DNA of 64,000 nucleotides from Sphingomonadales bacterium. GTDB lineage: Bacteria; Pseudomonadota; Alphaproteobacteria; Sphingomonadales; Sphingomonadaceae. Under the pieces are notes generated by a model. The model worked only from the letters and a program-made list of their open reading frames with translations, did no database searches and was not told the DNA's origin. Location of the stretch: the NCBI GenBank assembly GCA_025362295.1, contig JANYGX010000029.1:1-64000 (forward strand), in the 5' to 3' direction. Every line of letters begins with the position of its first letter. Positions within the stretch are counted from its first letter, which is position 1. Both the position numbers and the translations under genes were made by a program. Positions 41,051-59,757 of the stretch are shown in pieces.

Positions 41051-42973
41051 TTACATGCCAAAGGCGACGGATTTATCGTTGCTGCGTATCAGATTGCGAT
41101 AGCGTGCCAGTGCCCATAAGGGAAAAAATGCGCTGTAACCGTGGTAGCGCAAATAGAATATTTTTGGGAAGCCGACAGCCGTATACCAAGGCTCAACCCA
41201 CCGTCCGTTTTTTTCGCGCGGGTGTGATGCAAGGTAGCGCACCCCGCGTTCAACGACGGGATCAATAACTTTGCCGGCTGCCATAAGGCCTAGTAACGCC
41301 CAAGCCGTTTGAGACGGTGTAGATTCCTTGCAAAGGCCGCGCTGTGTTGCATCGTAGGTTGCACCGTCCTCACCCCATCCTCCGTCTTTATTCTGCGCTT
41401 TAAGTAAATAATCAGTGGCGCATGTCATCATATCACTATCCCGCTCAACGCCAGCGGCATTGAGTGCGCACAAAACCGACCAGGTGCCGTAGATATAATT
41501 GGTGCCCCAGCGGCCATACCAGCTGCCATCCTGTTCTTGCTCAGCGGCCAGATAGGCAAGCCCGCGTGCCACTACCGGATCATCATGCCTGCGACCAAGC
41601 TGTGCCAGAAATGAGATACAACGGGCAGTGACATCGGCAGTTGGCGGGTCAAGCAGCGCACCGTGGTCAGCAAATGGAATATAATTTAAATATTCATCAT
41701 TATTATCAATATCAAACGCACCCCAGCCACCGTTGCTCGATTGCATGCCGACAACCCATTGTTCGGCACGACGAATGCTTTCATCATAGCGTGGATCATG
41801 TGTACGGTGTAAAGCCATCGCAACCACGGCAGTGTCATCCACATCCGGATAGTGTGGATTCTCATATTGGAAAGCCCAGCCGCCAGGTTCAAGATTTGGC
41901 GCATGAACAGCCCAATCCCCTTTGATATCGAGAATTTGTTTAGATTGAAGCCAGCCGCCAGCCCCGGCAATGCTTCTATCTGCCAGTGCTTCACCAGTTT
42001 CCAGCATAGCGTGCATGGAGAGGGATGTATCCCATACCGGAGACTGGCACGGCTGAATAAAAACTTCACCATCGCTGCGACTGATCAGCTGCCGGATGGA
42101 TTTCTTCGCCGTTACCAAGCGCGCATCATCTTTGGCAAAGGCCAGGGCATGCATTGCCATTACAGCATTGGCCATGGCGGGGAAAATTGCCCCAAGACCA
42201 TCTTCGCCGTTCAGTCGCGGCAGAAAATAATCAAGTGCCGCTTGTAGAGATTTCTTACGCAACAATTTTGGAAAATAAGGTTCAACCAGGCGTAAAAATT
42301 TATCCAGATGTATAAACGCTGCCCCTTGCCATTTACCGGTTGTATTTTTGTGCCATGAGCGAATGGTTTCTGGATCAACGACGAATAATTCCCGAATGCT
42401 GGTACCCGTCGGGTTGATAGCCATAGGTTTAAGCATGGCAAGCACCAGCAGTGGTGAAATTACTGCGCGCGACCAGTAGGAAAAGCGCCAGATATTGATC
42501 GGAAACCATCGCGGCATTAACATCAACTCAATGGGCATAACGGGCACAGCCCGCCACGGCACATGGCCAAACAATGCCATGGCATAGCGCGTGAACACAT
42601 TGCACTTTTCAGCACCACCAGCCGCCAATATTGCCTTTCGCGCACGTATCATGTGCGGCGCATTCATATTATCACCAGCAGTTTTCAGTGCCCAATAAGC
42701 TTTTACAGATGCAGAAATATCCAGCGCACCTTTGTGGAACAAAGGCCATCCGCCGTGGCTTCCTTGGATAGATCGAATGTAGCTCGCAAGTTCTTCTTCA
42801 AGTTCAGGTTCACGTTCGTCAAGATAATGGCCCAGAAAAATATATTCAGCTGGAATTGTCGCATCCGCCTCCAAGTCAAACACCCAGTGACCATCTGATT
42901 GTTGCTGTGACTTGAGTGCAGCGACGCTTTCTGTAATTGCAGAATCTATATCGTGCATAAAATTTGTGTTCAT
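41051..42973 (-). CDS. shc: Squalene-hopene cyclase
   Basis: The enzyme folds squalene into hopene/hopanol at the inner membrane. The catalytic DxDD motif is DVDD at residues 377-380, and several QW repeats are present (GSWYGRWGTNYIYGTW, NGGWGAFDIDNN, DGGWGEDG). The 640-residue length is normal for the family. Its start overlaps the end of hpnE by ATGA, and it is the last gene of the leftward mlaA-hpnC-hpnB-hpnD-hpnE-shc operon. Confidence 0.97.
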   Translation of the reverse strand: MNTNFMHDIDSAITESVAALKSQQQSDGHWVFDLEADATIPAEYIFLGHYLDEREPELEEELASYIRSIQGSHGGWPLFHKGALDISASVKAYWALKTAGDNMNAPHMIRARKAILAAGGAEKCNVFTRYAMALFGHVPWRAVPVMPIELMLMPRWFPINIWRFSYWSRAVISPLLVLAMLKPMAINPTGTSIRELFVVDPETIRSWHKNTTGKWQGAAFIHLDKFLRLVEPYFPKLLRKKSLQAALDYFLPRLNGEDGLGAIFPAMANAVMAMHALAFAKDDARLVTAKKSIRQLISRSDGEVFIQPCQSPVWDTSLSMHAMLETGEALADRSIAGAGGWLQSKQILDIKGDWAVHAPNLEPGGWAFQYENPHYPDVDDTAVVAMALHRTHDPRYDESIRRAEQWVVGMQSSNGGWGAFDIDNNDEYLNYIPFADHGALLDPPTADVTARCISFLAQLGRRHDDPVVARGLAYLAAEQEQDGSWYGRWGTNYIYGTWSVLCALNAAGVERDSDMMTCATDYLLKAQNKDGGWGEDGATYDATQRGLCKESTPSQTAWALLGLMAAGKVIDPVVERGVRYLASHPREKNGRWVEPWYTAVGFPKIFYLRYHGYSAFFPLWALARYRNLIRSNDKSVAFGM

Positions 42974-44220
42974 ACAGCCAACACTCTTTCCGCTGCGCTA
43001 AAACCAGAACGAATAGCGCCCTCAATAGTAGCCGGCAATCCTGTCGCAGTATAATCACCAGCCAACCATAAATTTTTGTAGGCGGTTGTGGCATTTGGGC
43101 GACGGTGCAAAAATGCCGGGCACTGATCAAAAGTGGCACGCCGTTCTTTGATTAAACGATATGTTGGCATTGTATCTATGTTCATTTTGACAATCGCTGC
43201 AATATCACGCCAGCATGCGTTGGCAATAGCTTCGGCTGTCTCATCAAGCAAATGGTCTGCTGCGCTTATTGTGACAGAGGCTAGTCTTTCGCGCACAAAC
43301 AACCACTGTGCCGTAGACCCAACAAGCCCGGTCACTGACATTTGCTCTGCTGCGGGTAGTTTAAAATGCACGTTAATAATAGATTGTCCTGCTGGCGGTG
43401 GCTCAATGCTCGGCACCAGTTTGTTCACAGACCAAGCAGGCACGGCAAGCACAACACGGTCACCAGGCAACACTTCAATCTGCTGATGTGGCATATTAAT
43501 TGTCGTGATACGCTCACCAGAAAAGTTAAAGCCACTGATGCGAGATCTGGTGCTAACTATGCCCCCGTTTGATTCAATATAATGTATTGCAGGTTCAACA
43601 AATGTATCAGCCAGACTGGACCTTGCAATCATGGGCCGCGTTGCTTCACTGCCGCGCATGAAGGTTTCACGCATTACGGACGCCATTAAACTTGCAGCGG
43701 CGCGATCCATCGGTTCATTAATAGCTGCAACAACCAGCGGCTCCCAGAACTTTTCTACAACGTTGCCTGACGTGCCAAGGCAATCCGCCACTATGAGTGT
43801 CGGGTTTTTTTTGAATAATCCAAGAGCTGGCTTGTAATCCATAATCGTGGTGCCCGGTGCCCGTGCAGATTTATCAAGTAGCCACCACGGGATTTTTCCT
43901 TTGCTGGGTTTTATCTCCCAACGCTCACCGGATCGCACATCAACAAACGGATAGGATGCTGTTGGCGGGCCCACAAGCCGATCAAGTGTGCCGATGGTTT
44001 TGAGGTACGCCATAACCGAATAATTACCACTCATCACCAGATGATTGCCGTTATCAATGATTATATCTAGCTGTGGATCGTGATATGACCGGCATCGACC
44101 GCCCGCGTGTGGCGAGGCTTCAAACAACTTCACCTGCCGACCAGCATTTGCAAACTTAACTGCTGCAGCTAGTCCGGCGAGCCCTGCACCAATAATATAG
44201 ATTGTGCCGCGTAAATTCAT
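42970..44220 (-). CDS. hpnE: Hydroxysqualene dehydroxylase / squalene-forming flavoprotein HpnE
   Basis: HpnE is the FAD-dependent amine-oxidase-type enzyme that reduces hydroxysqualene to squalene, the third step after HpnD and HpnC. The dinucleotide motif is IYIIGAGLAGLAAAVKFANAG; GGRCRSYHD follows, and the C-terminal FAD segment is NLWLAGDYTATGLPATIEGA. I start at ATG 44220 because it overlaps the hpnD stop as ATGA; the frame itself opens at 44229 with GTG. About 416 residues. Confidence 0.95.
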   Translation of the reverse strand: MNLRGTIYIIGAGLAGLAAAVKFANAGRQVKLFEASPHAGGRCRSYHDPQLDIIIDNGNHLVMSGNYSVMAYLKTIGTLDRLVGPPTASYPFVDVRSGERWEIKPSKGKIPWWLLDKSARAPGTTIMDYKPALGLFKKNPTLIVADCLGTSGNVVEKFWEPLVVAAINEPMDRAAASLMASVMRETFMRGSEATRPMIARSSLADTFVEPAIHYIESNGGIVSTRSRISGFNFSGERITTINMPHQQIEVLPGDRVVLAVPAWSVNKLVPSIEPPPAGQSIINVHFKLPAAEQMSVTGLVGSTAQWLFVRERLASVTISAADHLLDETAEAIANACWRDIAAIVKMNIDTMPTYRLIKERRATFDQCPAFLHRRPNATTAYKNLWLAGDYTATGLPATIEGAIRSGFSAAERVLAV

Positions 44221-45056
44221 GCAAGCCACCCATACCGCAGGGCAATCGCAAGTTTAGCTATTTTGTCAGCGACATGTGCCAGACCGCGACGCTTTGGCAA
44301 AGCCTGCCAGCTGCCATTCCGCAGCTGCCGCCATAGTCTGCGATACACCATCATCATAACGTGCGCAGGCCGGACAGCACGGCGGTTGCAACGTTCCATG
44401 GCACCGGCAGCCTGTTCAAAATGCGTATCGGCCAAAATACCCAGCATAGCACGTGCCTTGTTTAAACTGTCATGCTTGACAATAGTGAGGGGATCGACTG
44501 ATTTTATACCAGCTGCCAACAAATACTCCTGCGGTACATAAAGCCTACCCATGGCAGCATCTTCCTCAATATCGCGTGCAATGTTGGTGAGCTGCAAGGC
44601 ACGACCGAGATGGTGAGCCAAAACCTGGCCATGCGAGGAAACCTCACCAAAAACCGGCATACACAAACGACCCACAGCGGATGCCACGCGATCACAATAT
44701 AAATCAAGCTGCAAAAGTGTTGGTGCTATTATTGGCCCTTTGGCATCCATTTCCATACCATCAACAACGGAATGTAAATCAACTGCCGACAACTCAAAAC
44801 TGATTCCTGCTTGAGCAAGCGCCATACATAAAGTATCCGTCTTTGCTATATGTAAGTTATCGATGCGGTCATGCCATCTTGCAAGTTCAGCAAGTTTATC
44901 CGCCTTGTTTCTGGAGCCATCATCAGCAATATCATCAACCATACGACAGAATGCATAGATGGCATAAAGTGCAGTACGTCGCTCCGTGGGAAGCAAACGC
45001 ATAGCCCAGTAAAACGATGAGCCACTTTTGGCCACTTGTGTTTCAAGCGATGTCAT
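44217..45056 (-). CDS. hpnD: Presqualene diphosphate synthase HpnD
   Basis: HpnD joins two farnesyl diphosphates to presqualene diphosphate. The 279-residue protein is all-helical with the two Asp-rich motifs MVDDIADD and NIARDIEEDAAMGR, and the N-terminal SSFYWAMRLLPTERR typical of squalene/phytoene synthases. It lies between hpnB and hpnE with a 31-base gap before it and an ATGA junction after it. Confidence 0.95.
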   Translation of the reverse strand: MTSLETQVAKSGSSFYWAMRLLPTERRTALYAIYAFCRMVDDIADDGSRNKADKLAELARWHDRIDNLHIAKTDTLCMALAQAGISFELSAVDLHSVVDGMEMDAKGPIIAPTLLQLDLYCDRVASAVGRLCMPVFGEVSSHGQVLAHHLGRALQLTNIARDIEEDAAMGRLYVPQEYLLAAGIKSVDPLTIVKHDSLNKARAMLGILADTHFEQAAGAMERCNRRAVRPAHVMMMVYRRLWRQLRNGSWQALPKRRGLAHVADKIAKLAIALRYGWLA

Positions 45057-45087
45057 GTGCCAGCTGTCATCGCTTCAACTACAAAAA

Positions 45088-46200
45088 TCAAGGTTTTGAG
45101 CGCACATAGGCACGCCCTTTCCAGTTACTACCGCGCCCGAACCAGTGGGCAATCGCCGAATCTAATGTCATTAGCATATAAAATATTGCCGTTATTGGTA
45201 AAAATACGGAGAGCATGGCGGATTGCTGATACCGCTTCAAAGTCGGTATATAAGTGATAATCATAAGCAACCATGATGCAGCAGCCAGCAGAGCAATAAA
45301 TTTTTGAGCATGCCACTGGCTGATCAGCAGGGCAGGAGCCACCAAGAAAGTAAGGATAAGCCCGAACACTGTGCCTAGCAACAGCATTGGATTATAACGA
45401 AGTTGTGTAAACGCTGTGCGTTTTATCATGTTCCAGAGTGGTGCAAGCGTGTTAGCTTGCCTTAAAGACAAGCTCATATCTGAGAGTCCCAGCCATAGGT
45501 TGCCACCGCTAACTTTAACGCGTTTGGCCAGCGCGCAATCATCAATCAAAGTATTATGGTAACTCTCAATTCCACCTATTCGCTCTAGTGCATCGCGTCG
45601 CAAAAGGATGCTGCCACCTGCAGCGCCCGCCAATTTTGAGGCTGGATTGTTCACTGCAGGAAACGGATATAACAGTGTAAAAAAATAAATAAATCCAGGC
45701 ACTAACAGACGTTCCCAAAATGACAAGCAGCGAAGCTGTACCATGACAGAAACCAGTGCTTTATTTTCGATTTGTGCCACCATAGCCGACAGTGTGCCTG
45801 CTTTATGAATGATATCAGCATCCGTAAACCAAAAAAGCTCTGATGATTGAGATTGCAAAACACCGTTATGCAATGCCCATAATTTGCCGCTCCAGCCTAG
45901 CGGCAAAGCCGGTGTATGAATAACCGTTGCTCCGGCACTTTGGGCCAATTGGCCAGTGCCATCTGTACTGGAATCATCGACAACCATGATATGAAAACTA
46001 CCTTGGTAATTTTGTGCCGCAAGATGCTTCACAACCGTAGCAATCGTTTTAACCTCGTTCCGTGCAGGCACAATGATAGCAACGGATGGTGCATAAACTG
46101 TCGTTTTTTGTGGTAGTATTTGGTTGGAGCGCCAAAACCCATGCCAGAAAAATGTCAGGCAAATCCAAATGAGAAGATTTAGCAGAGCCAAATAAATCAT
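45088..46200 (-). CDS. hpnB: Hopanoid-associated glycosyltransferase HpnB
   Basis: A GT2-type glycosyltransferase: residues about 40-240 hold AIIVPARNEVKTIATVVKHL, MVVDDSSTDGT and the metal motif FTDADI, followed by several membrane helices to residue 370. The N-terminal helix is a membrane anchor. HpnB is a regular member of hopanoid operons; its acceptor and sugar are not firmly known. ATG 46200 overlaps the hpnC stop by ATGA, so I prefer it to the longer frame. Confidence 0.9.
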   Translation of the reverse strand: MIYLALLNLLIWICLTFFWHGFWRSNQILPQKTTVYAPSVAIIVPARNEVKTIATVVKHLAAQNYQGSFHIMVVDDSSTDGTGQLAQSAGATVIHTPALPLGWSGKLWALHNGVLQSQSSELFWFTDADIIHKAGTLSAMVAQIENKALVSVMVQLRCLSFWERLLVPGFIYFFTLLYPFPAVNNPASKLAGAAGGSILLRRDALERIGGIESYHNTLIDDCALAKRVKVSGGNLWLGLSDMSLSLRQANTLAPLWNMIKRTAFTQLRYNPMLLLGTVFGLILTFLVAPALLISQWHAQKFIALLAAASWLLMIITYIPTLKRYQQSAMLSVFLPITAIFYMLMTLDSAIAHWFGRGSNWKGRAYVRSKP

Positions 46201-47024
46201 AATGTGCGCAACAAGCCACGACCTGCACATATCAAACTGGAAAACTTGGTCAGTTTTACCCGCTTTGCAATCGGATCTTCCTGTCGCAGTTTTTCTACCA
46301 GCTTTTCAGCTATTGCAACAATTACACTCGCCTCAGCTGAAAGCCGTTTACTCTTCAATGCCATCGGCAACTTGCGTGCAAGCTGAAGCAGCAATTCAGT
46401 CGCATCAAGACAGCGATCGAGTACAACTCTTAAGGCAGCAGTCAGGTGGGTGCCCCCAATATCCTCTATTAAAGCGCCAGCTTCATTAAGCCAGTCGGTT
46501 GGAACATAAACACGGTTCAAGGTGTGCTTGTCATCAGCCATATCCTGGCAGTGGTTTATCACCTGCAAGGCATTGCAGAGTGCGTCGGACAATGAATAAT
46601 GTGCTGGGTCTTCGCCATGCAAGTCCAGTAAATAACGACCAACCGGTGAAGCTGAGCGATTGCAATATGTAATCAATTCGTTCCAGTTGGCATAACGATT
46701 TTTGATGGCATCTTGTTTAAAGGCGCTAATGAGATTATGCCCGTGAACATGGCTAATACCGCACTCACGCAACGATTGATGCAAGCGGGTCGCTGATAGA
46801 TACAGCGGATTTTCATTGCCATCATCCAAAGCTCGAGAAAAACTATCGAGCTGGCCTATCTTGTCTTCGGCTGCAAGCGTTGCACTGTCGGCAATATCAT
46901 CAATAGTACGGGCAAACGCATAAAATATAGCCACATGTGGTCGTAAATTTGCAGGCAATAACCATGATCCAACCGGAAAGTTTTCTGTTTCTGCAGATTT
47001 TATGAAGGCTGCTGGTGTTGTCAT
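46197..47024 (-). CDS. hpnC: Hydroxysqualene synthase HpnC
   Basis: HpnC converts presqualene diphosphate to hydroxysqualene, between HpnD and HpnE. It is a 275-residue squalene-synthase-like protein with FARTIDDIADSA and the second motif NHCQDMADDKHTLNRVYVP, plus FPVGSWLLP near the N-terminus. The start overlaps mlaA and the end overlaps hpnB, each by ATGA, which points to coupled translation. Confidence 0.94.
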   Translation of the reverse strand: MTTPAAFIKSAETENFPVGSWLLPANLRPHVAIFYAFARTIDDIADSATLAAEDKIGQLDSFSRALDDGNENPLYLSATRLHQSLRECGISHVHGHNLISAFKQDAIKNRYANWNELITYCNRSASPVGRYLLDLHGEDPAHYSLSDALCNALQVINHCQDMADDKHTLNRVYVPTDWLNEAGALIEDIGGTHLTAALRVVLDRCLDATELLLQLARKLPMALKSKRLSAEASVIVAIAEKLVEKLRQEDPIAKRVKLTKFSSLICAGRGLLRTL

Positions 47025-47836
47025 GGCTTTTGCAGTGGTATCGGTTTGTCCAGCTCATCCCCAAGCGGATCATCTTGCTTCTGTTGTGGAGGGCCACCGT
47101 TGCGCACATCATTTTCGCGCGACTGTCGCCAAGTTTCACGCAGCGCCACATAGGGGTCAACGGTTTTTTGCAATTCTTGCAGCTCATCAAAAAAAGCATC
47201 AGTTTGCGTTACAAAACCCAGTGTGGTTTGTGCATTGCTGAGTGTTTGCCTGGCATTGGCGCTGCGAATAATCTCATTGTTGGCTCCACGAAAAATCCAG
47301 AACAATGGATCAGATATCACGTCAACGGCCTTTCCAAACGCGTCTCTTGCCGATGATGGCCCCAACAACGGTATCATTAAATAAGGCCCTTGTGACACAC
47401 CCCATACGCCTAATGTCTGGCCAAAATCTTCTTCAACCGGGGTAATGCCAGCTCGCTTGGCAGGGTCAAATAAACCGCCAATACCAAGGGTTGAGTTTAT
47501 GACTAGCCTTGCCAAAGACTTCAGCATGGCTTTGGGATGCCCCTGCAGCAGTTGATTGGCCGCTGTCACGGGTGTGTTTAAATTGCCAGTGAGGTTGATC
47601 AAACCGCGACGCACTGGGTGCGGCATAATTGTTCTGTAAACAACAAGAGCTGGTTTTACAGCATTTTTGTTTACAATGCTATTAACCTTGAATGTCGCAC
47701 GGTTTAACGGCTCTAGAGGGTCGTAGCTTGTGTGTACGCCACTTGATGCGCATGAACTTATGGCTAACATTGCCAACGTCGTGACAAACCAATTAATTGC
47801 TATGATCTGCCCCACTTTAATTTTATAAATTTGCAT
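47021..47836 (-). CDS. mlaA: Outer-membrane lipid-transport lipoprotein MlaA (VacJ)
   Basis: MlaA is an outer-membrane lipoprotein that takes phospholipid from the outer leaflet for retrograde transport. The lipobox is AISSC near residue 29; then DPLEPLNRATFKVNSIV, the RRGLINLTGNL segment and DFGQTLGVWGVSQGPYLMIP are family marks. It is the first gene of the leftward hopanoid operon and overlaps hpnC by ATGA. TATAAT on the minus strand at 47863-47858 is a candidate -10 box. No good ribosome site is visible, so the start is uncertain. Confidence 0.93.
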   Translation of the reverse strand: MQIYKIKVGQIIAINWFVTTLAMLAISSCASSGVHTSYDPLEPLNRATFKVNSIVNKNAVKPALVVYRTIMPHPVRRGLINLTGNLNTPVTAANQLLQGHPKAMLKSLARLVINSTLGIGGLFDPAKRAGITPVEEDFGQTLGVWGVSQGPYLMIPLLGPSSARDAFGKAVDVISDPLFWIFRGANNEIIRSANARQTLSNAQTTLGFVTQTDAFFDELQELQKTVDPYVALRETWRQSRENDVRNGGPPQQKQDDPLGDELDKPIPLQKP

Positions 47837-47976: not shown

Positions 47977-49122
47977 GTGGCGGACGCTAACCGACAGATA
48001 GTTCCACCCATCAGGATCGATTTTTCGACCGATGACAAGAAATGGATTGCTGAAAAAATCACAGATGTTTTAACGTCCGGACGGTTGACACTTGGTGTTT
48101 ACGGCGAAGAATTTGAAGCTGAATTCGCTGCTATGCACGGTGTAAAATACGCGGTCGCTGTTAACAGCGGCACATGCTCTCTGGAAATAATTTATCGTGC
48201 TTTGGATGTAAAAGGCCGCGATGTGCTGGTGCCTGCAGATACATTTTTTGCAACGGCGGCCACAGTGATAGCGGCTGGTGGAAACCCTGTACTGATGGAT
48301 ACGGATATCGAAACTCTTTCGACCACCGCATTAGAAGTCGAAAAGCGCCTGACAGATAACACGGCAGCCATCACAATTGTACATTGCGCTGGCCTTATGA
48401 CCAGTGAAATGCCCGCGATTGTTGCACTCTGCAAGGCACGAGGCATTCCACTTGTTGAAGATGCAGCTCATGCGCATGCATCCACATTAAACGGACAGTA
48501 TGCAGGCAGCTTTGGTATTGCAGGATCTTTCAGCTTTTATCCAACCAAAGTCATGACATCGGCAGAAGGCGGCATGATCACTACAGATGACGAGCGCATA
48601 GCCACTGAAGCGCGCATATACCGTGATCAGGGCAAAGCGAGTTTTCATCAAAATAGCCACATTCGGCTTGGCTATAACTGGCGGATGAGTGAGCCATGTG
48701 CCATTATTGGCTTACGACATTTACAGCATCTGAAAGAAATGGTCGCCGGGCGCAAGCGCGCAGCGGCTCTCTATTTTGATGCGCTGACCGCTGAAAATTG
48801 TGGCCTCAGACTTATCCATGAACCCAAGGGTAACAGTGCTAATTTTTACAAATTTGCAGCTTATTTACCGGATGGCTGTGATCGTGCGCACCTCAAAGCA
48901 TGGATGAAAGAAGAGCACGGCGTTATTTTTGCCGGAGAGGCTTATGAATTTGCCTTGCAGCAGCATCCGGTTTTTCAGCATCTTGATACTGGCGATTTGC
49001 CAGACTCACTCTATGCTTGCGGGAGACAAGTTTGTTTGCCCATGTTTGCCAGCATGACAGACACAGAAATAAACCGCGTGGTTGATGGCCTCAAGGCCGC
49101 CAAAATTGCAGGAGTGCTATAA
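47977..49122 (+). CDS. DegT/DnrJ/EryC1-family sugar aminotransferase
   Basis: A PLP-dependent enzyme of the sugar-aminotransferase family, 381 residues, starting at GTG 47977 after GGGAG. The fold-type I motifs are VNSGTCSLEIIYRAL, VEDAAHAHAS, and the Schiff-base Lys191 in FYPTKVMTSAEGGMITT. Members transfer an amino group to keto sugars bound to a nucleotide. It forms a two-gene unit with the epimerase that follows directly, placed between the two arms of the hopanoid locus and divergent from mlaA. The sugar is unknown. Confidence 0.9.
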   Translation: MADANRQIVPPIRIDFSTDDKKWIAEKITDVLTSGRLTLGVYGEEFEAEFAAMHGVKYAVAVNSGTCSLEIIYRALDVKGRDVLVPADTFFATAATVIAAGGNPVLMDTDIETLSTTALEVEKRLTDNTAAITIVHCAGLMTSEMPAIVALCKARGIPLVEDAAHAHASTLNGQYAGSFGIAGSFSFYPTKVMTSAEGGMITTDDERIATEARIYRDQGKASFHQNSHIRLGYNWRMSEPCAIIGLRHLQHLKEMVAGRKRAAALYFDALTAENCGLRLIHEPKGNSANFYKFAAYLPDGCDRAHLKAWMKEEHGVIFAGEAYEFALQQHPVFQHLDTGDLPDSLYACGRQVCLPMFASMTDTEINRVVDGLKAAKIAGVL

Positions 49123-50076
49123 ATGGCCGTTGTTTTAGTCACAGGGGGGGCTGGTTTTATTGGTAGCCATACAGTTGATATATTGATGGAAAATGGTCAC
49201 TGTGTAATTGTTCTGGACGATCTTAGTAGCGGCTCGATGAAAAATCTGCAGCGGTGGGATTCCCATGAGCGTTTATTTTTTGTCAAGGCATCTGTGGTGG
49301 ATGACCTAGTGCCGACACTTCAGCATGCAGTTGCAAAAGTGGGGAAAATTGAGCGTATTATACATTTTGCAGCTCAAACAGCTGTGCCTTTGTCTGTCGA
49401 TAATCCGCTGAATGATATTTCCATAAATCTCGGTGGTATTGTTCGGGTACTAGAATATGCACGGCATGACAGTGTTGAAAAAGTAGTTTTTTCCTCATCC
49501 TCCGCTGTTTACGACGATGCCGCCCCCATGCCAGTGAGTGAAAAAACGCTGGCACGACCATCCTCACCCTACGGCATCAACAAACTCTCCAGCGAATTTT
49601 ACCTTGATTATTATGCACGATTACACGGTGTGAATTTCACAGGTTTGCGATTTATGAATGTTTATGGTCCGCGGCAAGACCCCAACAGCTATTACTCCGG
49701 AGTCATTTCAATATTTCTGGATCGCGCTGCTAAACACCAACCCATTCATATTTATGACGACGGCGAGCAAACACGAGATTTTGTTTATGTCAGTGATGTA
49801 GCAAGCGCTGTGTGCGCCGTCTGTTTTGAGGCGTCAAGCGATAGGGCAATCATAAATATCGGTACGGGCATTGAAGTCTCTATAAATATGTTGGCTGAAA
49901 ACATTATAAGTTTATCAGGATCGCATTCCACAATCGCGTATTTACCAGCTCGATTGGGGGATATTCGCCGCTCTGTTACAACGCTTGATAGAGCAAAAGA
50001 GACATTTGGTTTTTCACCTAAAATGACTCTGGAAAATGGCTTAAAGGCGACATGCGACTGGATGATGAACTGTTAA
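49123..50076 (+). CDS. NAD-dependent sugar epimerase/dehydratase (extended SDR)
   Basis: The 317-residue protein has the NAD motif VTGGAGFIGSHTVDIL, HFAAQTAVPLSVDNPLND, and the catalytic YGINK after the Ser-rich FSSSSAVYDD. This is the UDP-glucose 4-epimerase/WbpP type. It begins at the base after the aminotransferase stop, so the two are surely co-transcribed. Together they could turn a nucleotide sugar into an epimerised or aminated form. It is not the shorter, differently patterned HpnA family. Confidence 0.9.
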   Translation: MAVVLVTGGAGFIGSHTVDILMENGHCVIVLDDLSSGSMKNLQRWDSHERLFFVKASVVDDLVPTLQHAVAKVGKIERIIHFAAQTAVPLSVDNPLNDISINLGGIVRVLEYARHDSVEKVVFSSSSAVYDDAAPMPVSEKTLARPSSPYGINKLSSEFYLDYYARLHGVNFTGLRFMNVYGPRQDPNSYYSGVISIFLDRAAKHQPIHIYDDGEQTRDFVYVSDVASAVCAVCFEASSDRAIINIGTGIEVSINMLAENIISLSGSHSTIAYLPARLGDIRRSVTTLDRAKETFGFSPKMTLENGLKATCDWMMNC

Positions 50077-50101: not shown

Positions 50102-51076
50102 TCAAGTTGCGCCGTCTTCCTTTTTTGGTTGGGTCCATCCAAGTTTACCGCCAATCACGACCCCTATAATTGCCCATACCAGTTCTCGCACACGTCTGAA
50201 TAGCGCACACGCCAAACCTAAGGCAGTGTTATGCGTGAAGGCAGAAAATGCGAAAGTCGTAGCAGCATCTTGTGCACCCAGATGACCAGGTATAAAAAAT
50301 GTAGCGCTGCGCACAAGTGTGACAAGTGTTTCTATAGCCCAAGCATCTTTAAAACTTATAGGCATTCCCAGTACCCAGCACATGGCCCACAACTCAACCC
50401 CAAAGAGCAGCCAGTTAACGGCTGTCGCCAGAAAACCAAGACAAAAACTTGTTTTGCCCTCACGCATCAATTCGCCCAGCAAATGCTGAACACGCGTGAT
50501 AGATTCAAGATGCTTGTAAAAAAACTTCGGCACTAAAGTTGCAACCCACTGCTGATGCAAGGCCATCATAATGAAGATCAAAAATAATATTATTATAGCA
50601 AAAAATAAGAGTAAAAATACCTCAAGTCGTGGCGATACTATATGTCTCTGTAATGTAATAATTAGTCCACCCAGTACAAATGGCACTTGGCTAACGGTTA
50701 GTAGCACTTGCATAGCAAGCAAAGATGCAACGCTATCTGCCATACGAATGTTATAGCGCTTGTGAAGCAATAAGGCTTTTACGGGTTCACCGGCAAACGA
50801 GCCAAATGGTGTAAGCACTTGCATGGCGTCCGCAACAATCAGCAATTGCCATAATCGTATAAGCCAGGTTTTGCAAAATGCAGCGCCTTTCAAAACCAGA
50901 TTCCATGCCAGTGCATCAAAGCCAACGGCGACAGGAAATACTAGGGCAAAAGGCACAGTACGTGACCAGGATATCTTTGAATATAACTCGCTGATATCTT
51001 TAATATCTATAGATCGGAGCAGCCATACTAAACAAACTAAACCAGCAGCACATGCAGCAGCGCGCCAGTAGGTCAC
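50102..51076 (-). CDS. hpnL: Hopanoid-associated membrane protein HpnL
   Basis: The 324-residue protein has about seven to eight membrane helices and belongs to the lysylphosphatidylglycerol-synthase membrane-region (UPF0104-like) family, with LTPFGSFAGEPVKALLLHKR as the clearest conserved stretch. HpnL members occur in hopanoid loci and are thought to help place hopanoids in membranes; the mechanism is unknown. It overlaps hpnI by ATGA and is convergent with the epimerase gene. Confidence 0.85.
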   Translation of the reverse strand: MTYWRAAACAAGLVCLVWLLRSIDIKDISELYSKISWSRTVPFALVFPVAVGFDALAWNLVLKGAAFCKTWLIRLWQLLIVADAMQVLTPFGSFAGEPVKALLLHKRYNIRMADSVASLLAMQVLLTVSQVPFVLGGLIITLQRHIVSPRLEVFLLLFFAIIILFLIFIMMALHQQWVATLVPKFFYKHLESITRVQHLLGELMREGKTSFCLGFLATAVNWLLFGVELWAMCWVLGMPISFKDAWAIETLVTLVRSATFFIPGHLGAQDAATTFAFSAFTHNTALGLACALFRRVRELVWAIIGVVIGGKLGWTQPKKEDGAT

Positions 51077-52257
51077 GTTGATGTATCCGCACCAAGAGCA
51101 GCAGCATCACAACCGTTTCGAGGAATAATAGTGCCGTCCGCTCGAAGCCTGAATTTTATGCCCCGCCAGATATAGTTGCGGCGCAAAAGCGCTGTGCACC
51201 ATGTCAACAAACCCAAACAGTCCCTGAAAGGTAGCAACCACAAATAACGAATATCCAAATCACCAAGCTTAAGCATAACCATTTGTGCGCAGACACTTCT
51301 GATCAAAACCGTTGTTCCCAGCATGATCGTTGCAGCAGGATCAGCGTCGCGCACTGTGGCCAATATCAAAGCAAACGGCACAGCACGCGTCAACACGCTT
51401 GCAACAAAACCCATATAATTTGCAGCTTTAGTATTCATATCCCAATAGACTTGATGTTGCCACCAATCTCTAAAATGTTTTAATGTAATGCGCATATCGA
51501 CCACATGCGGCACTAGCACGGCGCGCTTGCCGAGAGCTGTGATGCGTTTGCCGATCTCATAATCTTCAACCAGATAAGGCAGCATAGCCGTCATCCCGCC
51601 CACAGCATTGAGGTCGGATTTTCGAAACGCCATGGAAGCGCCAAGGCAAAATGGCGCTGCTTTGCTCCAGCTGGCAAACAACACCTGCGCCATAAAATCA
51701 GCGTTAAAAGACAAGGCTTCTAGCTTTTCAGCAAATGTATCCGCATTGACGATTTTATACAGCGAACATGCGTATCCCGTCGTGTCGCTTCTGAACGATT
51801 CCATCATCAAGCTGGTATAGTCTTCATTCACGCGCACATCGCTATCGGTGATAATGATGTGATCATATTGAGCGTACGCTATGCCGCCGATCATATTCTG
51901 CACCTTGCCGTTCACTACAGGAGGACTTGGCGTTATAACAACAGTTACAAGGTCAGAATATTCCTGAGCCAGACTGTGCAACAATGGTAAGGCAGTATCA
52001 TTCTCTCTTTGTACGCACAGAATGATCTGGATGGGCCCACCATAGCGTTGGCTACAAAAGCTGCGGAGGTTGGCCTCAAGACCAGTATCGAGTCCGTAAC
52101 ATGGCTTCAGATGCGTCACACCAATATTATTGGGTGACACCATCATGGCCGGCTCGCTCATTATTTTTTTAGCAGCAGCAACACTCAGGAACGACAAAAG
52201 ACTTCCTGCTATCATGGGTAGGCCAAGTAAGAATTCGGTAAAAAGAAGCAAGTTCAT
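51073..52257 (-). CDS. hpnI: Hopanoid glycosyltransferase HpnI
   Basis: A ceramide-glucosyltransferase-like GT2 protein of 394 residues: an N-terminal membrane helix, KPCYGLDTGLEANLRSFCSQ, IILCVQRENDTA, ITDSDVRVN as the metal site, and YLVEDYEIGKR, then C-terminal membrane helices. In characterised pathways HpnI adds N-acetylglucosamine to bacteriohopanetetrol; HpnK then deacetylates it and HpnJ contracts the ring. HpnJ and HpnK are absent from this window. It is co-transcribed with hpnL. Confidence 0.9.
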   Translation of the reverse strand: MNLLLFTEFLLGLPMIAGSLLSFLSVAAAKKIMSEPAMMVSPNNIGVTHLKPCYGLDTGLEANLRSFCSQRYGGPIQIILCVQRENDTALPLLHSLAQEYSDLVTVVITPSPPVVNGKVQNMIGGIAYAQYDHIIITDSDVRVNEDYTSLMMESFRSDTTGYACSLYKIVNADTFAEKLEALSFNADFMAQVLFASWSKAAPFCLGASMAFRKSDLNAVGGMTAMLPYLVEDYEIGKRITALGKRAVLVPHVVDMRITLKHFRDWWQHQVYWDMNTKAANYMGFVASVLTRAVPFALILATVRDADPAATIMLGTTVLIRSVCAQMVMLKLGDLDIRYLWLLPFRDCLGLLTWCTALLRRNYIWRGIKFRLRADGTIIPRNGCDAAALGADTST

Positions 52258-52335: not shown

Positions 52336-52998
52336 GTGAGTATTATTAAAGCTTTAATTGTCTCAATGGGCTTGAGCTCAATAATGCTGGATTTATCAGG
52401 GCAAGTCGTTGCCGCGACACTTGAGGCCAAGGATATTTCCGCAGCGGCCAAACCTGTGGTTGATAAATTTTACGCAAGTTTGTTGGCAACTATGAAAGAG
52501 GGCGATAAACTTGGCTTTGAAGGCCGTAAAGCCAAACTTGAGCCTGTTGTAAAGGGCAGTTTTGATTTGCCACTTATGTCGCGTGCAGTGGTCGGGCCAA
52601 CCTGGTATAAACTAAAGTCAGAAGATCAATCTGCAATCACCGGTGCATTCAGCGATTGGGCGGTTGCGACATACGCCAACAGATTTACCAGTTTTAACGG
52701 CGAACAATTTACCGTGGGAGAAACATCGGATGGTGGTCGTGGCACGGTCCAGGTAAAATCAACCATCAAGCCTAAATCTCAAGATGCTGTCGTGCTCAGC
52801 TACAGGCTCAGAAATGATGGCAAAATATGGCGTATTGTTGATGTTTATTACAATGGCACAATCAGCCAGCTGAGTAACTGGCGCGCTGAATTTGCCAGCA
52901 TAGTACAAAAGCCCGAGAGCGCACCTGGATTGCATGGTGCAGGCGGATTGGTAACGCGGTTAAAGCAACTCAGCGCGGAGCTGGCAAAGGCTAAATGA
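52336..52998 (+). CDS. hpnM: Hopanoid-associated MlaC-like periplasmic protein HpnM
   Basis: The start is GTG at 52336, after GAGGA. A signal peptide of about 27 residues ends at VAA-TLEA. The rest is an MlaC/Ttg2D domain, a periplasmic lipid carrier, with WYKLKSEDQSAITGAFSDW and IWRIVDVYYNGTISQLSNWRAEFASI as conserved parts. HpnM is expected to carry lipid between membranes, perhaps hopanoid. The end overlaps hpnG by ATGA. Confidence 0.9.
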   Translation: MSIIKALIVSMGLSSIMLDLSGQVVAATLEAKDISAAAKPVVDKFYASLLATMKEGDKLGFEGRKAKLEPVVKGSFDLPLMSRAVVGPTWYKLKSEDQSAITGAFSDWAVATYANRFTSFNGEQFTVGETSDGGRGTVQVKSTIKPKSQDAVVLSYRLRNDGKIWRIVDVYYNGTISQLSNWRAEFASIVQKPESAPGLHGAGGLVTRLKQLSAELAKAK

Positions 52999-53657
52999 CA
53001 TTTGGTGTTGTAACCGGATTGCCGAGCGAAGCAAAGCTTTGGCGGAAACTCCTTCCCAATGTAGAGGTGGCCTGCTTTGGTATGGGACCTGACGCTGCGT
53101 CGTGCGCGGCAGAACACCTGATACTTAAGGGTGTAACAACTTTGATTAGCTCAGGTATAGCAGGGGGCTTGTCCCCGCAAGCAAGCACTGGCACCGTTAT
53201 TATCGCAAATAGAGCCACGAACGACGATGGATTGATATTAGAGTGTGATTCAGTTTTATGTGCCAAGTGGCAAGAGCTTCTGCCATATGCGATGATGGGC
53301 ACTATACTTACAACACATAGTGTTATTGCAACCATCAATGATAAAAGTCGTTTGTATGAGCATAACAATGCAACAGCCGTGGATATGGAAAGTTTTGCAG
53401 TAGGTCAGGTGGCCTTGAAGAGCAATCTACCATTTGCCGTTCTGAGAGTGATTGCCGACCCCTATAATCAAACTATTGCTTCAGCCTTTTTGGAAGCTTT
53501 GCGGGAAGACGGCACACTAGACACAAAATTAATTGTTAAAGCTTTACTGGCTAGACCTAAACTGGCTTTTAATGGGGTAAGTTTAGCTTGGCAATCTCAC
53601 ATAGCCCACAATCAACTGCGTATGGCAATTCGTGCTTTGTCTAAATTTACAATGTAA
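52995..53657 (+). CDS. hpnG: Hopanoid-associated nucleoside phosphorylase HpnG
   Basis: HpnG removes adenine from adenosylhopane, giving a phosphoribosyl-hopane on the way to bacteriohopanetetrol. The 220-residue protein has the MTA/SAH-nucleosidase-like fold with GVVTGLPSEAKLW at the start, LISSGIAGGLSP, and VDMESFAVGQVALKSNLPFAVLRVIAD. HpnH, which makes adenosylhopane, is not in the window. The gene ends 11 bases inside the end of the convergent MAPEG gene. Confidence 0.92.
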   Translation: MTFGVVTGLPSEAKLWRKLLPNVEVACFGMGPDAASCAAEHLILKGVTTLISSGIAGGLSPQASTGTVIIANRATNDDGLILECDSVLCAKWQELLPYAMMGTILTTHSVIATINDKSRLYEHNNATAVDMESFAVGQVALKSNLPFAVLRVIADPYNQTIASAFLEALREDGTLDTKLIVKALLARPKLAFNGVSLAWQSHIAHNQLRMAIRALSKFTM

Positions 53658-54192: not shown

Positions 54193-55260
54193 CTAATAAC
54201 CAAATATCATGTGGCTGCGTTTACCAAAAGCTTGTTTTGTCAAAAATAGCATGAGCGATGTGCATAATAACGTAGCAAAAAGTGTGAAAGAATAGCCCGA
54301 CAAACTTACCAATGGCTCAGTATGCCTCAAGCCTGAACCGGACGTTGTAAAGGCACCTTGCCAAGCAAAACGTACCCCTGCCAGAATAAAGCCGTGTAAA
54401 AAATACAATCCAAAACTGGCATCAGCAAGCCAGTTGACGATTGGATTTATAACTTTAATTTTTGATCGAAAATAGCTAATATAGCAAAGTACAAAACTCA
54501 ATTTTGCAATCATATGCAATCCATCTGACTGACTTTGACCAAGTATCTTTATCGGTAAGTGTATGGTCATCGCATAGACGCAAAAAACCATCAAGAACGA
54601 ACTTATTAAGATTATCTCCTTATCCCAATTCTTTATACGGTTTTCATACCTGTTGTAAAACATACCCATAAGATAAGCCGGCAGAAGATAAAGTGCTTTA
54701 TTGATGGGCCCATAATGTCCATTTCTACCATATACAACAGACAGGCAAAGGGCCGGAATTATGAGCCAGTAAAGCCAGTTTTTGCGATCTCCATGAATAA
54801 ATATCGGAGATAAAATATAGAAAATTGTTATTGTTGGAATAAACCAGAATGGAGCCATTTGCTTACCCGTAACCAGAAACATAATAATCTGTTGCCACAA
54901 GGGTATAGTGTAAAACCACGACCATAAATCTGTCCGGTGCGTGACTATGGTATAGATGTAAATGGGACAAGCAGATAAAAGAATATATGGCAGGATAACT
55001 GAAGAAAATTTGCGTTTGAGATAAGTTGAATACTTAAACTTTATTGCAAGCTGCTGAAAAAGATATCCGGATATAAAGAAGAAAATAACGGAACCTTGGT
55101 TAATCGTGGAATCCACTATGTGAAACAATAAGCTTTGATGATTCCAGTTAAACAAAAACAAACAGTGCGTCGCGATTACCAAACATATAGCTATAGCCCG
55201 AAGGACATGTATTTCATTGCGAAAAGTAGGTGATTTTGTAATGAACGGTGCTTTAAGCAT
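54193..55260 (-). CDS. Acyltransferase-3 family O-acyltransferase
   Basis: The 355-residue membrane protein has about ten helices and starts with the family signature NEIHVLRAIAICLVIATHCLFLFNW, whose His is catalytic in OafA-type enzymes, and has FFFISGYLFQQLA in the next helices. Members move acyl groups onto exported sugars such as O-antigen or capsule. I start at ATG 55260, where GGA precedes by 9 bases. The gene is AT-richer than its neighbours, as acyltransferase-3 genes carried in variable polysaccharide regions often are. The substrate is unknown. Confidence 0.87.
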   Translation of the reverse strand: MLKAPFITKSPTFRNEIHVLRAIAICLVIATHCLFLFNWNHQSLLFHIVDSTINQGSVIFFFISGYLFQQLAIKFKYSTYLKRKFSSVILPYILLSACPIYIYTIVTHRTDLWSWFYTIPLWQQIIMFLVTGKQMAPFWFIPTITIFYILSPIFIHGDRKNWLYWLIIPALCLSVVYGRNGHYGPINKALYLLPAYLMGMFYNRYENRIKNWDKEIILISSFLMVFCVYAMTIHLPIKILGQSQSDGLHMIAKLSFVLCYISYFRSKIKVINPIVNWLADASFGLYFLHGFILAGVRFAWQGAFTTSGSGLRHTEPLVSLSGYSFTLFATLLCTSLMLFLTKQAFGKRSHMIFGY

Positions 55261-55390
55261 GATAAGTTTCCAATTCAGAATATAATAATAGAAACCCTCC
55301 CACACGTTTCATATTTATTGCATTAAATGTAGATTAACCAACATGAACGCAAGATTAACTGAATGTATTAAGTATGTCAAAAAAAATAGA

Positions 55391-58116: not shown

Positions 58117-59757
58117 CTACGTCTGATCTGACAGCCTGTCTGCAGGTTTTGCTCCACCCGGCAGCGCGTCCGTATGACTGCGCAAGGTCGACTCAAATGC
58201 GCCGATGCTTTGGGCACGCGATGTGTCGGCGCTGGTGTTTGGCGCGACTATCATTGACTGTTTGTCGGCAAAGTCGTGCAGTGCCGCGAACAAGGCATCG
58301 GCGCTGCCTTCTGCGCCAGCGATGGTGCCGATGATGCGCGGCGTGTCTTGACCGAAAGCCACGGTTTCAATATCCGCAGCCCAAATTGTCACTGCTAGAT
58401 TTTCAACATTGATCAGTGTTTTCTGGGTTGAAAAGCGGCTGGTCATCTGGTTGCCAACCTGGGCTGAAGCATTTTGGTAAGTGCCGGTCATTTCCAGCCA
58501 GAATAATGTCGAGCGAAAGTCAAAGCGCCCCCACAGAATATGAGCAGCGCGGTAGGAGGAAAGGGCAGCGACGGCTGTCACGGCCAGCCACGCCAAAATA
58601 CGCACTCGGTCTTCCGGTACTTGCACGCTAGTCGCAGCCATATAAGCCAGTATCGCTGCAGCAAATGTGAACAACAGCGCCATGCCGCTCAGCACCATCA
58701 GCCACAATTGTCGGCCCACCGCGCTATCCGGCGCGAATGGTTGCGGTTGGGTTTCTTCCATCATGTCGATGCGAAGCTGTCCGGTCTCTGCTGCTTTGCC
58801 GAGTTGTAGCGGCGTGTAGATATAGCGCCGGTTGGGCAAGCCATCAGCAGCAAAAGTGCGCAATTGCCGCTCGAACTCACCGAGAAATTCCGATGGATTG
58901 AAATTCACCGTCGCAGTGGTGCGGCGCATGGCTGGTGGCGTGTTAATGCCCCGGTAAAGCTGGCTCCGCAGCGCAAGCAAGAATAACACATGCACCGTCA
59001 GCAACAAAACCAATATGAGGGCGACATGACAATTGATCGCATAGGTTTGTAAGGTCGAGAGCTTCTTACCATAGAATAGAAATAGTGCTGGGATGAACAC
59101 CGACAGCACGACAATCAATATGAGCGGTCGACTTTCCAGATTGACTGCCTCGCCGGTCCGCAAATTCTTGACCAGCCAGTAGAAAACTAGCAGGCCATAA
59201 ATGGCCCCCAGCCAGTTGGCAAAATCTGTCGAGCCCATCAAGAACCAGCAAAAGGCAAAACTGAGCGCGATGATCACCGTCGCCATGAAGTTGCGGAATT
59301 GGAAGCGGGCAATATGCTGCAATTGCAGCGGTGCATAAACGATGTTGCGCACCAAAGCATAAAGCAGATTGCTGATCGGGTCTTTCGGCGCAACATAATC
59401 GATGCTGTTCTTGCGGATTTGATTTTTTAGATGTTCAGCGGGTTCGGATGTAGCGCTCAAACCGTCCGGGATGAGTTGGGCGAGCGGCCGCGGATGATCG
59501 ACATCAAAAATCAGCCGCAACAGGCTCATCATCCGCACCGTCAACCCGACACCTAAACCGAGCAAGGTTACCGCGAGGCCGAGCGGGCCTATCAGTCCCC
59601 GCGCCTTGTCAGGATCAAAACCATTGCGCGCATGAATGAGTATGGCGATGCCGGTGCCAAAACAGATCAGCGCCATCATCGCCAGAATGATATTTTCAAA
59701 TCGATAGGGATTGGGCCAAGACCGAATACGAGCCTGCGACTCGACCTGAATACTCAT
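58117..59757 (-). CDS. Unknown multi-spanning membrane protein
   Basis: A 546-residue protein with about eight hydrophobic segments in three groups (roughly 25-75, 160-265 and 350-415), separated by soluble regions, and a soluble C-terminal part of about 130 residues with ESTLRSHTDALPGGAKPADR at the end. Composition and codon use resemble chromosomal genes. I recognise no family. Its GGGAG ribosome site and start codon overlap the end of a transposase remnant, so its present 5' end may have been created or moved by that insertion. Confidence 0.7.
   Translation of the reverse strand: MSIQVESQARIRSWPNPYRFENIILAMMALICFGTGIAILIHARNGFDPDKARGLIGPLGLAVTLLGLGVGLTVRMMSLLRLIFDVDHPRPLAQLIPDGLSATSEPAEHLKNQIRKNSIDYVAPKDPISNLLYALVRNIVYAPLQLQHIARFQFRNFMATVIIALSFAFCWFLMGSTDFANWLGAIYGLLVFYWLVKNLRTGEAVNLESRPLILIVVLSVFIPALFLFYGKKLSTLQTYAINCHVALILVLLLTVHVLFLLALRSQLYRGINTPPAMRRTTATVNFNPSEFLGEFERQLRTFAADGLPNRRYIYTPLQLGKAAETGQLRIDMMEETQPQPFAPDSAVGRQLWLMVLSGMALLFTFAAAILAYMAATSVQVPEDRVRILAWLAVTAVAALSSYRAAHILWGRFDFRSTLFWLEMTGTYQNASAQVGNQMTSRFSTQKTLINVENLAVTIWAADIETVAFGQDTPRIIGTIAGAEGSADALFAALHDFADKQSMIVAPNTSADTSRAQSIGAFESTLRSHTDALPGGAKPADRLSDQT

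What the first reader, a model, noticed from the sequence alone, without database searches (positions are those of the whole stretch)
47977..50076. Aminotransferase/epimerase pair inside the hopanoid locus
A DegT-type aminotransferase and a UDP-sugar epimerase, abutting each other, lie between the hpnC-mlaA and hpnI-hpnL arms, where characterised clusters have hpnJ and hpnK. They could build an amino sugar donor for HpnI or HpnB, giving a hopanoid head group other than the cyclitol ether.
Basis: inference. Interest (0 to 1): 0.5.

Follow-up and report, generated by a model that had tools for sequence, protein, structure and literature searches.

The report
Sugar-making gene pair for bacterial hopanoids
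Two sugar-modifying genes inside a hopanoid (bacterial "sterol-like" lipid) gene cluster turn out to travel, in several bacterial phyla, with an unusual form of the enzyme that attaches sugars to hopanoids, which points to an undescribed type of hopanoid head group.

Summary
Confirmed: a DegT-type aminotransferase (AT, 47977-49122 +) and a GalE-like SDR epimerase (49123-50076 +), abutting, lie between hpnC-mlaA and hpnL-hpnI. The setting is not chance. AT relatives of 51-64% identity form one clade; 34 of its 35 members (window included) have HpnI on the locus or elsewhere in the genome. HpnI of AT loci is itself a separate clade (28 AT loci against 30 no-AT loci, one split, support 100). Its HxxRW motif reads HxxYW in 28 of 28; the Arg is kept in 30 of 30 ordinary HpnI. 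HpnI of Burkholderia and two other named genera groups with the ordinary one. In 12 of 13 other HpnI-2 loci with the SDR, HpnJ is there too. This genome lacks HpnJ but has HpnK and HpnH elsewhere, so the pair does not replace hpnJ/hpnK. Best reading: AT and SDR make an amino-sugar nucleotide for a divergent HpnI ("HpnI-2"), and without HpnJ the product stays an aminoglycosyl hopanoid instead of a cyclitol ether. Linkage and motif switch are shown; substrate, product and keto-sugar source are inferred. New variant of a known kind.

The parts
47977..49122 (+). DegT/DnrJ/EryC1/StrS aminotransferase (AT), hopanoid-linked clade; catalytic Lys in SFYPTK
   Evidence: PF01041 311 bits; K191 invariant in 27 aligned sequences; AF2 model pLDDT 91.9, best structural match GDP-perosamine synthase Z 47.8, rmsd 2.4, 364 aligned
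49123..50076 (+). Extended SDR, UDP-hexose(NAc) 4-epimerase type; SSSSAVY and YGINK motifs, Ser in GDIRRS
   Evidence: PF01370 190 bits; closest solved chains 4zrm (named UDP-glucose 4-epimerase) and 6wjb
51073..52257 (-). Divergent HpnI glycosyltransferase (HpnI-2), HxxYW instead of HxxRW
   Evidence: TIGR03472 258.6 bits, cut-off 310; clade and motif
50102..51076 (-). HpnL-like flippase-type membrane protein
   Evidence: PF03706 84.5 bits; TIGR03476 109 bits, cut-off 195.65
52336..52998 (+). HpnM (MlaC-like)
   Evidence: TIGR03481 167 bits, over cut-off
52995..53657 (+). HpnG-like phosphorylase
   Evidence: TIGR03468 150.5 bits, cut-off 187.1
47021..47836 (-). MlaA lipoprotein
   Evidence: PF04333 212.7 bits
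46197..47024 (-). HpnC
   Evidence: TIGR03464 269.8 bits, over cut-off
45088..46230 (-). HpnB glycosyltransferase
   Evidence: TIGR03469 462 bits, over cut-off
44217..45056 (-). HpnD
   Evidence: TIGR03465 275.7 bits, just under the cut-off of 278.6
42970..44229 (-). HpnE
   Evidence: TIGR03467 384 bits, over cut-off
41051..42973 (-). Squalene-hopene cyclase
   Evidence: TIGR01507 747 bits, over cut-off

Best explanation
The pair are two enzymes of a branch of hopanoid head-group synthesis built around a divergent HpnI ("HpnI-2", a working name). The AT, a PLP-dependent nucleotide-sugar aminotransferase (probably at C4), and the SDR, an NAD-dependent UDP-hexose or UDP-HexNAc 4-epimerase type enzyme, prepare an amino-sugar nucleotide. 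HpnI-2 (51073-52257) transfers this sugar to bacteriohopanetetrol. HpnK, on another contig, removes an acyl group. As HpnJ is missing, the product stays an aminoglycosyl hopanoid and is not rearranged to the cyclitol ether. SHOWN by sequence: gene presence; linkage of AT and HpnI-2 across phyla; a separate HpnI clade with HxxYW; HpnJ not found, HpnK and HpnH present in the genome; fold classes. INFERRED: that the AT product is HpnI-2's donor, which position is aminated, the epimerase's substrate, and the final lipid. NOT EXPLAINED: which enzyme supplies the keto-sugar, since the usual AT partner (SDR2) is missing from this genome. RmlB of an rmlBDCA operon (contig C35) is one possible source.
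For: AT clade of 35 rows including the window, SH-aLRT 99: 26 with HpnI on the locus, and HpnI found in 8 of the 9 remaining genomes, so 34 of 35. HpnI tree: 28 AT loci and 30 no-AT loci are two sides of one branch, SH-aLRT 100, 1 change. Motif: position 271 Tyr 28/28 in HpnI-2, Arg 30/30 in ordinary HpnI; position 275 Asn 28/28, Thr 30/30. Class sample of 385 genomes: HpnI in 34; AT in 4, three of them HpnI genomes; SDR in 2, both in the HpnI locus. AT is in 3 of 3 HpnI-2 genomes and in 0 of 31 other HpnI genomes, Fisher p 1.7e-4; 2 of 2 if the query genome is left out. Among 43 no-HpnI AT rows, 37 have SDR2 on the locus and 15 a glycosyltransferase of one of two clusters, as expected of a sugar-donor module. 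AT model closest to GDP-perosamine synthase and ArnB. HpnJ not found; HpnK and HpnH present. In cellulose synthases the Arg of the motif contacts the donor diphosphate and Arg-to-Ala kills activity (PMC10592267, passages).
Against: No chemistry or expression data. The keto-sugar source is unidentified: the SDR lacks the Glu of dehydratases/decarboxylases (role of the Glu recalled), and SDR2 is absent (best hits at most 37% identity) from this genome and from 7 of 7 related genomes tested. One AT-clade genome (L016/G594) has hpn genes but no HpnI match. C3 aminotransferases follow close behind in the structural ranking (WbpE Z 46.4, QdtB 46.2, against 47.8). In BcsA an Arg-to-Phe change at the motif keeps about 16% activity, so an aromatic residue need not mean a new donor; it could also reflect the acceptor or a weaker enzyme. 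In the Nitrospirota and Acidobacteriota loci the hopanoid link rests on HpnI, HpnK and in some loci HpnJ; no other hpn gene was detected on those stretches and squalene-hopene cyclase was not searched in those genomes. HpnK was seen on 18 of 27 other HpnI-2 loci, not in the window's nearest group. Most relatives are MAGs, and AT loci were found by similarity to the window's AT. In none of the other HpnI loci listed do AT and this SDR abut as in the window; there they lie kilobases apart or with SDR2 between.
Confidence: 0.55

Rival explanations
1. The AT acts on the hopanoid itself, not on a nucleotide sugar: it aminates an aldehyde or ketone of the side chain or of the attached sugar (in the manner of HpnO), and HpnI-2 changed because its acceptor changed.
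For: The keto-sugar source is missing in the window's genome; in the window's nearest group the AT lies beside hpnC rather than beside hpnI; one genome has the AT in an hpn locus without an HpnI match.
Against: The fold is that of nucleotide-sugar aminotransferases; 37 of 43 no-HpnI AT rows have SDR2 on the locus and 15 a glycosyltransferase.
Confidence: 0.2
2. Only the SDR feeds HpnI-2, by turning UDP-GlcNAc into UDP-GalNAc (giving BHT galactosamine), while the AT makes an unrelated decoration.
For: The SDR is closest to 4-epimerases, with Ser at the position where 6wjb also has Ser; in the L013-type loci it is next to HpnI, and in G394 one gene away; a later-eluting BHT glucosamine isomer of unknown structure is in print (PMC12583986 section 19).
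Against: 14 of the 27 other HpnI-2 loci lack the SDR but have the AT; the HpnI split follows the AT.
Confidence: 0.17
3. LPS or exopolysaccharide sugar genes that landed in the hpn locus by chance.
For: AT and SDR superfamilies are common in polysaccharide loci (general knowledge); 43 of 77 AT rows had no HpnI on the fetched locus, three of them members of the hopanoid clade whose stretch is cut short.
Against: 34 of 35 members of the AT clade have HpnI in the genome; AT at E<=1e-60 in only 4 of 385 class genomes, 3 of which have HpnI-2.
Confidence: 0.05
4. AT and SDR are functional replacements of HpnJ and HpnK.
For: HpnJ was not found in this genome.
Against: HpnK is present; AT, SDR and HpnJ occur together in 12 of 27 other HpnI-2 loci.
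Confidence: 0.03

Closest known systems
HpnI-HpnK-HpnJ pathway to bacteriohopanetetrol cyclitol ether (Schmerk et al. 2015, as described in PMC12583986)
   Same: HpnI-family glycosyltransferase, HpnK deacetylase, HpnL, hpn locus
   Different: HpnI is a separate clade with HxxYW; HpnJ not found; AT and SDR added. Neither was found in the 30 ordinary HpnI loci examined, up to about 9 kb each side, 7 of them cut by contig ends
GDP-perosamine synthase and ArnB (DegT C4 aminotransferases)
   Same: Fold and 26-30% identity; Z 47.8 and 46.2
   Different: No dehydratase or ArnA-type partner seen in the locus; NCBIfam cut-offs not reached
GalE-type 4-epimerases (4zrm, named UDP-glucose 4-epimerase; 6wjb, which I recall as PelX, a UDP-GlcNAc 4-epimerase)
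   Same: 239 and 205 bits; SSxxVY, YxxxK, Ser in the GD-x-R-x-S stretch
   Different: Below the GalE cut-off (186 of 262.3 bits); in the class sample found only in two genomes, both in the HpnI locus
HpnO (aminotransferase to 35-aminobacteriohopanetriol)
   Same: Aminotransferase serving hopanoids
   Different: HpnO is described as close to ArgD-type aminotransferases (PMC5462960, passage); this one is DegT type

Membership tests
HpnI (TIGR03472 equivalog) | Score over the curated cut-off of 310 bits | tested here: not met
   Window protein 258.6 bits; relatives L013 (329) and L030 (332) are over it
HpnI / GT21 [QR]xxRW signature | Arg before the Trp of the motif | tested here: not met
   Tyr in window and in 28/28 HpnI-2; Arg in 30/30 ordinary HpnI, which read HExRW; Burkholderia arboris, Paraburkholderia graminis (hpnJ-adjacent copy) and Methylobacterium bullatum have HELRW
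HpnI-HpnK-HpnJ cyclitol ether pathway | HpnJ in the genome | tested here: not met
   Best hit 22 bits in a 474-aa frame, cut-off 577.6; radical-SAM matches of the genome listed
HpnI-HpnK-HpnJ cyclitol ether pathway | HpnK in the genome | tested here: met
   C3:91992-92774, 309.8 bits, cut-off 232.6
DegT/DnrJ/EryC1/StrS aminotransferases | PF01041 domain and catalytic Lys | tested here: met
   311 bits; K191 invariant in 27 aligned sequences
C4 nucleotide-sugar aminotransferase (ArnB/PerA type) | Amination at C4 of an NDP-4-keto-sugar | tested here: inconclusive
   Nearest fold GDP-perosamine synthase, but C3 enzymes lie within Z 1.6
UDP-hexose/HexNAc 4-epimerase | SDR Ser-Tyr-Lys residues and no dehydratase Glu | tested here: met
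   SSSSAVY, YGINK; the role of the Glu is recalled, not tested
UDP-hexose/HexNAc 4-epimerase | Epimerase activity | not testable with these tools
   Needs an enzyme assay
HpnO | ArgD-like aminotransferase | tested here: not met
   The window AT matches PF01041; whether HpnO is elsewhere in the genome was not searched

The most novel reading that the evidence does not exclude
A second, unrecognised branch of hopanoid head-group synthesis exists in at least four phyla (Pseudomonadota, Myxococcota, Nitrospirota, Acidobacteriota, by the labels of the MAGs). A divergent HpnI with an altered donor-binding motif and a dedicated aminotransferase (plus SDR or SDR2) puts an amino sugar not yet known to hopanoid chemistry on bacteriohopanetetrol. 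Where HpnJ is also present, it turns that sugar into a new amino-cyclitol ether.
Probability: 0.45. Interest if true: 0.75.

Novelty: new variant of a known kind. Interest (0 to 1): 0.6.

Why it matters
Several hopanoid head groups have no assigned genes. A 2025 survey of Alphaproteobacteria reports isomers of BHT glucosamine and cyclitol ether of unknown structure, and no obvious candidate genes near hpn clusters beyond hpnA, B, L and M (PMC12583986, sections 19 and 26). This locus supplies named candidates and a simple genomic marker (HxxYW HpnI plus AT) for choosing strains to analyse, and bears on how hopanoid fossils are assigned to producers.

Tried and rejected
Replacement of hpnJ/hpnK by the pair: rejected, see rivals. 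HpnB as the recipient of the sugar: not favoured. SDR2 as a UDP-glucuronate decarboxylase making a 4-keto-pentose (Arn-like route): its closest solved chain is UXS1, but L030 and the SDR2 sequences for which my pattern printed that stretch read S-[ST]-x-W-V-Y where UXS1 has a Glu, so I do not claim it. The D/E change at position 231 (Asp 30/30 against Glu 28/28) is dropped as a marker, because Burkholderia and P. graminis HpnI also have Glu (LAED). HpnJ-SDR co-occurrence (12 both, 0 HpnJ only, 1 SDR only, 14 neither; the window, SDR only, not counted) is clustered on the tree: 3 independent pairs on well-supported branches, sign test p 0.5, so it is a pattern and not a tested association. The second P. 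graminis HpnI (L180) did not match my motif pattern and sat on a long branch nearest ordinary HpnI; left unresolved. A plasmid search with the AT found no carrier of the clade (7 records, best 41%). Literature: the listings (open-licence PMC papers only) showed no account of a DegT aminotransferase or of two HpnI types in hopanoid loci. Papers seen: PMC12583986 (abstract, passages, sections 19, 26, 30, 32), PMC5462960, PMC7231039, PMC7185993 and PMC10592267 (passages). PMC7231039 reports hpnIJ in Leptospirillum but not in Nitrospira marina; I did not test which HpnI type Leptospirillum has.

Row choices: AT loci were found by similarity to the window's AT, so their HpnI are not a random sample; the class survey is the check. 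L129 was dropped as the same contig as L024 (judged from equal contig length and mirrored hits). L130 (G256) was examined for neighbours but left out of the tree as a partial HpnI; G509 (HpnI with an in-frame stop) and the second HpnI copies of G455, G486 and G534 were not fetched. Six AT rows with hpn genes but no full HpnI on the fetched stretch were labelled apart. L035's SDR2, cut by the contig end, was counted with a lower threshold.

Full report
OBSERVATION. The window holds a hopanoid locus: squalene-hopene cyclase, hpnE, hpnD, hpnB, hpnC and mlaA on the - strand (41051-47836), then two + strand genes, then hpnL and hpnI on the - strand (50102-52257), then hpnM and hpnG. Neither reaches any NCBIfam cut-off.

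THE REST OF THE GENOME. The assembly (G000, 2.59 Mb, 37 contigs, completeness 100) has HpnK on contig C3 (309.8 bits, cut-off 232.6) in a second hpn group with hpnA, a PhyH-domain gene and hpnN, and HpnH on C7 at 150 kb (534.9 bits). HpnJ was not found: the best TIGR03471 hit scores 22 bits, and one search lists 11 radical-SAM matches, one of them HpnH. So hpnJ is missing from the locus and from the genome, but hpnK is not. According to PMC12583986 (passages and section 30) a strain that lacks only hpnJ of hpnI, hpnK and hpnJ had BHT glucosamine as its sole bacteriohopanepolyol derivative.

IS THE AT LINKED TO HOPANOIDS? A scan of genome contigs with the AT gave 75 loci. tblastn with the window's hpn proteins showed that the closest relatives sit with HpnI: Rhodospirillaceae and 'Marinimicrobia'-labelled MAGs (hpnC next to AT, then hpnL, SDR, hpnI and in five loci hpnJ), Nitrospirota, Acidobacteriota, Myxococcota ('Deltaproteobacteria') and one gammaproteobacterium. 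On an AT tree of 77 rows a clade of 35 rows, the window included (SH-aLRT 99; 51-64% identity to the window's AT), holds 26 rows with HpnI on the locus; for the other nine, HpnI was found in eight genomes (263-329 bits, the range of HpnI-2, but these eight were not placed on the HpnI tree). The exception is L016/G594, which has hpn genes but no HpnI match. Of the 43 rows without HpnI on the locus, 37 have another SDR (SDR2) there and 15 a glycosyltransferase of one of two clusters, named from one representative each.

UNBIASED CHECK. In 385 genomes drawn over the class, HpnI occurs in 34 (E<=1e-60), the AT at E<=1e-60 in 4 (own, G394, G427, and G275 at only 38% and without an HpnI match), and the SDR at E<=1e-70 in 2 (own and G394). 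AT is present in 3 of 3 genomes with the divergent HpnI and in 0 of 31 other HpnI genomes (Fisher p 1.7e-4; without the query genome 2 of 2). Of those 31, 29 HpnI were placed on the tree, G256 was partial and G509 was not fetched. The 29 plus G011 from the family make the 30 no-AT loci: HpnJ near HpnI in 28, HpnK in 21, SDR in 0, SDR2 in 0. They reach up to about 9 kb each side of HpnI; seven are cut shorter by contig ends. In the order, the AT was found in 1 of 196 genomes, the window's own.

A DIVERGENT HpnI. The HpnI proteins split into two groups with SH-aLRT 100: 28 from AT loci and 30 from no-AT loci. Residues fixed on each side include Tyr271 (28/28) against Arg (30/30) and Asn275 (28/28) against Thr (30/30), in the motif HxxYWDQN against HExRWxRT. 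This corresponds to the [QR]xxRW motif that marks GT21 and its relatives and coordinates donor and acceptor (PMC7185993, passages). In cellulose synthases its Arg contacts the donor's diphosphate; Arg to Ala abolishes activity, while Arg to Phe in BcsA keeps about 16% (PMC10592267, passages). The DxD motif (DSD) is kept. HpnI of Burkholderia arboris, of Paraburkholderia graminis (hpnJ-adjacent copy) and of Methylobacterium bullatum group with the ordinary HpnI and have HELRW, so the lineage studied in Burkholderia is probably the ordinary one; B. cenocepacia itself was not placed. I call the AT-linked group HpnI-2. Its predicted structure (pLDDT 85.7) is nearest hyaluronan synthase (Z 24.4, rmsd 3.4, 349 aligned).

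THE TWO SDRs. The window's SDR is nearest 4-epimerases (4zrm 239 bits, 6wjb 205 bits), has SSSSAVY and YGINK, and a Ser in GDIRRS where 6wjb (recalled as PelX) also has Ser. I take it as a UDP-hexose or UDP-HexNAc 4-epimerase; the gatekeeper rule is recalled. SDR2 is on 18 of the 27 other HpnI-2 loci but is absent (best hits at most 37% identity) from the window's genome and from seven relatives of its group. Among those 27 loci the window-type SDR goes with HpnJ: 12 both, 0 HpnJ alone, 1 SDR alone (L022), 14 neither; the window itself is SDR alone. The tree offers too few independent cases for a test.

MECHANISM. The AT model (pLDDT 91.9) is closest to GDP-perosamine synthase (Z 47.8, rmsd 2.4, 364 aligned) and ArnB, with C3 aminotransferases close behind. 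The simplest account is that AT, with an SDR, prepares an amino-sugar nucleotide for HpnI-2, HpnK deacylates, and HpnJ, where present, rearranges. In this genome the last step is missing. The weak point is the keto-sugar: the window's SDR lacks the Glu of dehydratases and SDR2 is absent here. The rmlBDCA operon on C35 could supply dTDP-4-keto-6-deoxyglucose, which is a guess. A second weak point is that in Nitrospirota and Acidobacteriota the hopanoid link rests on HpnI, HpnK and in some loci HpnJ (L030 HpnI 332 and HpnK 371 bits, over cut-off), not on a demonstrated cyclase.

NOVELTY. The listings (open-licence papers) showed no description of a DegT aminotransferase or of two HpnI types in hopanoid loci. 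A 2025 survey of Alphaproteobacteria states that no obvious candidate genes beyond hpnA, B, L and M were evident near hpn clusters (PMC12583986, section 26). I rate this a new variant of the HpnI pathway, well supported as a genetic association and open as to chemistry.

Noticed in passing
G000 contig C3, locus L088:9853-10704 (+): A PhyH-type (Fe/2-oxoglutarate) dioxygenase gene (PF05721, 57 bits) lies between hpnK and hpnN. The genes that make bacteriohopanepentol/hexol are unknown (PMC12583986 section 32), so it is a candidate side-chain hydroxylase. tblastn at E 1e-8 found no relative in the other loci searched.
   Followed up: partly
window 54193-55305 (-): A membrane acyltransferase (PF01757, 113 bits) lies downstream of hpnG; it could acylate a hopanoid sugar or be unrelated.
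   Followed up: no
L021:4966-6894 (-), clustered with ORFs of L013, L014, L015, L018, L019, L022, L023, L039: A DXS (1-deoxyxylulose-5-phosphate synthase) gene lies beside hpnB in nine relatives of the locus (Pfam on L021 only, the others by clustering), but not in the window.
   Followed up: partly
L024, L026-L031, L033-L035, L037, L042, L045, L080, L084: Fifteen of the 27 other HpnI-2 loci have small EamA-type membrane proteins near HpnI/AT, and none of the fifteen has an HpnL hit of 100 bits or more: possibly the flippase of that branch (Pfam on L030 only).
   Followed up: partly
L016 (G594): AT kept beside hpnC while no HpnI match is found in the genome: either an incomplete MAG or a role of the AT without HpnI.
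   Followed up: partly
window 58117-59757 (-): A 546-aa ORF without a Pfam or NCBIfam match at the thresholds used.
   Followed up: no
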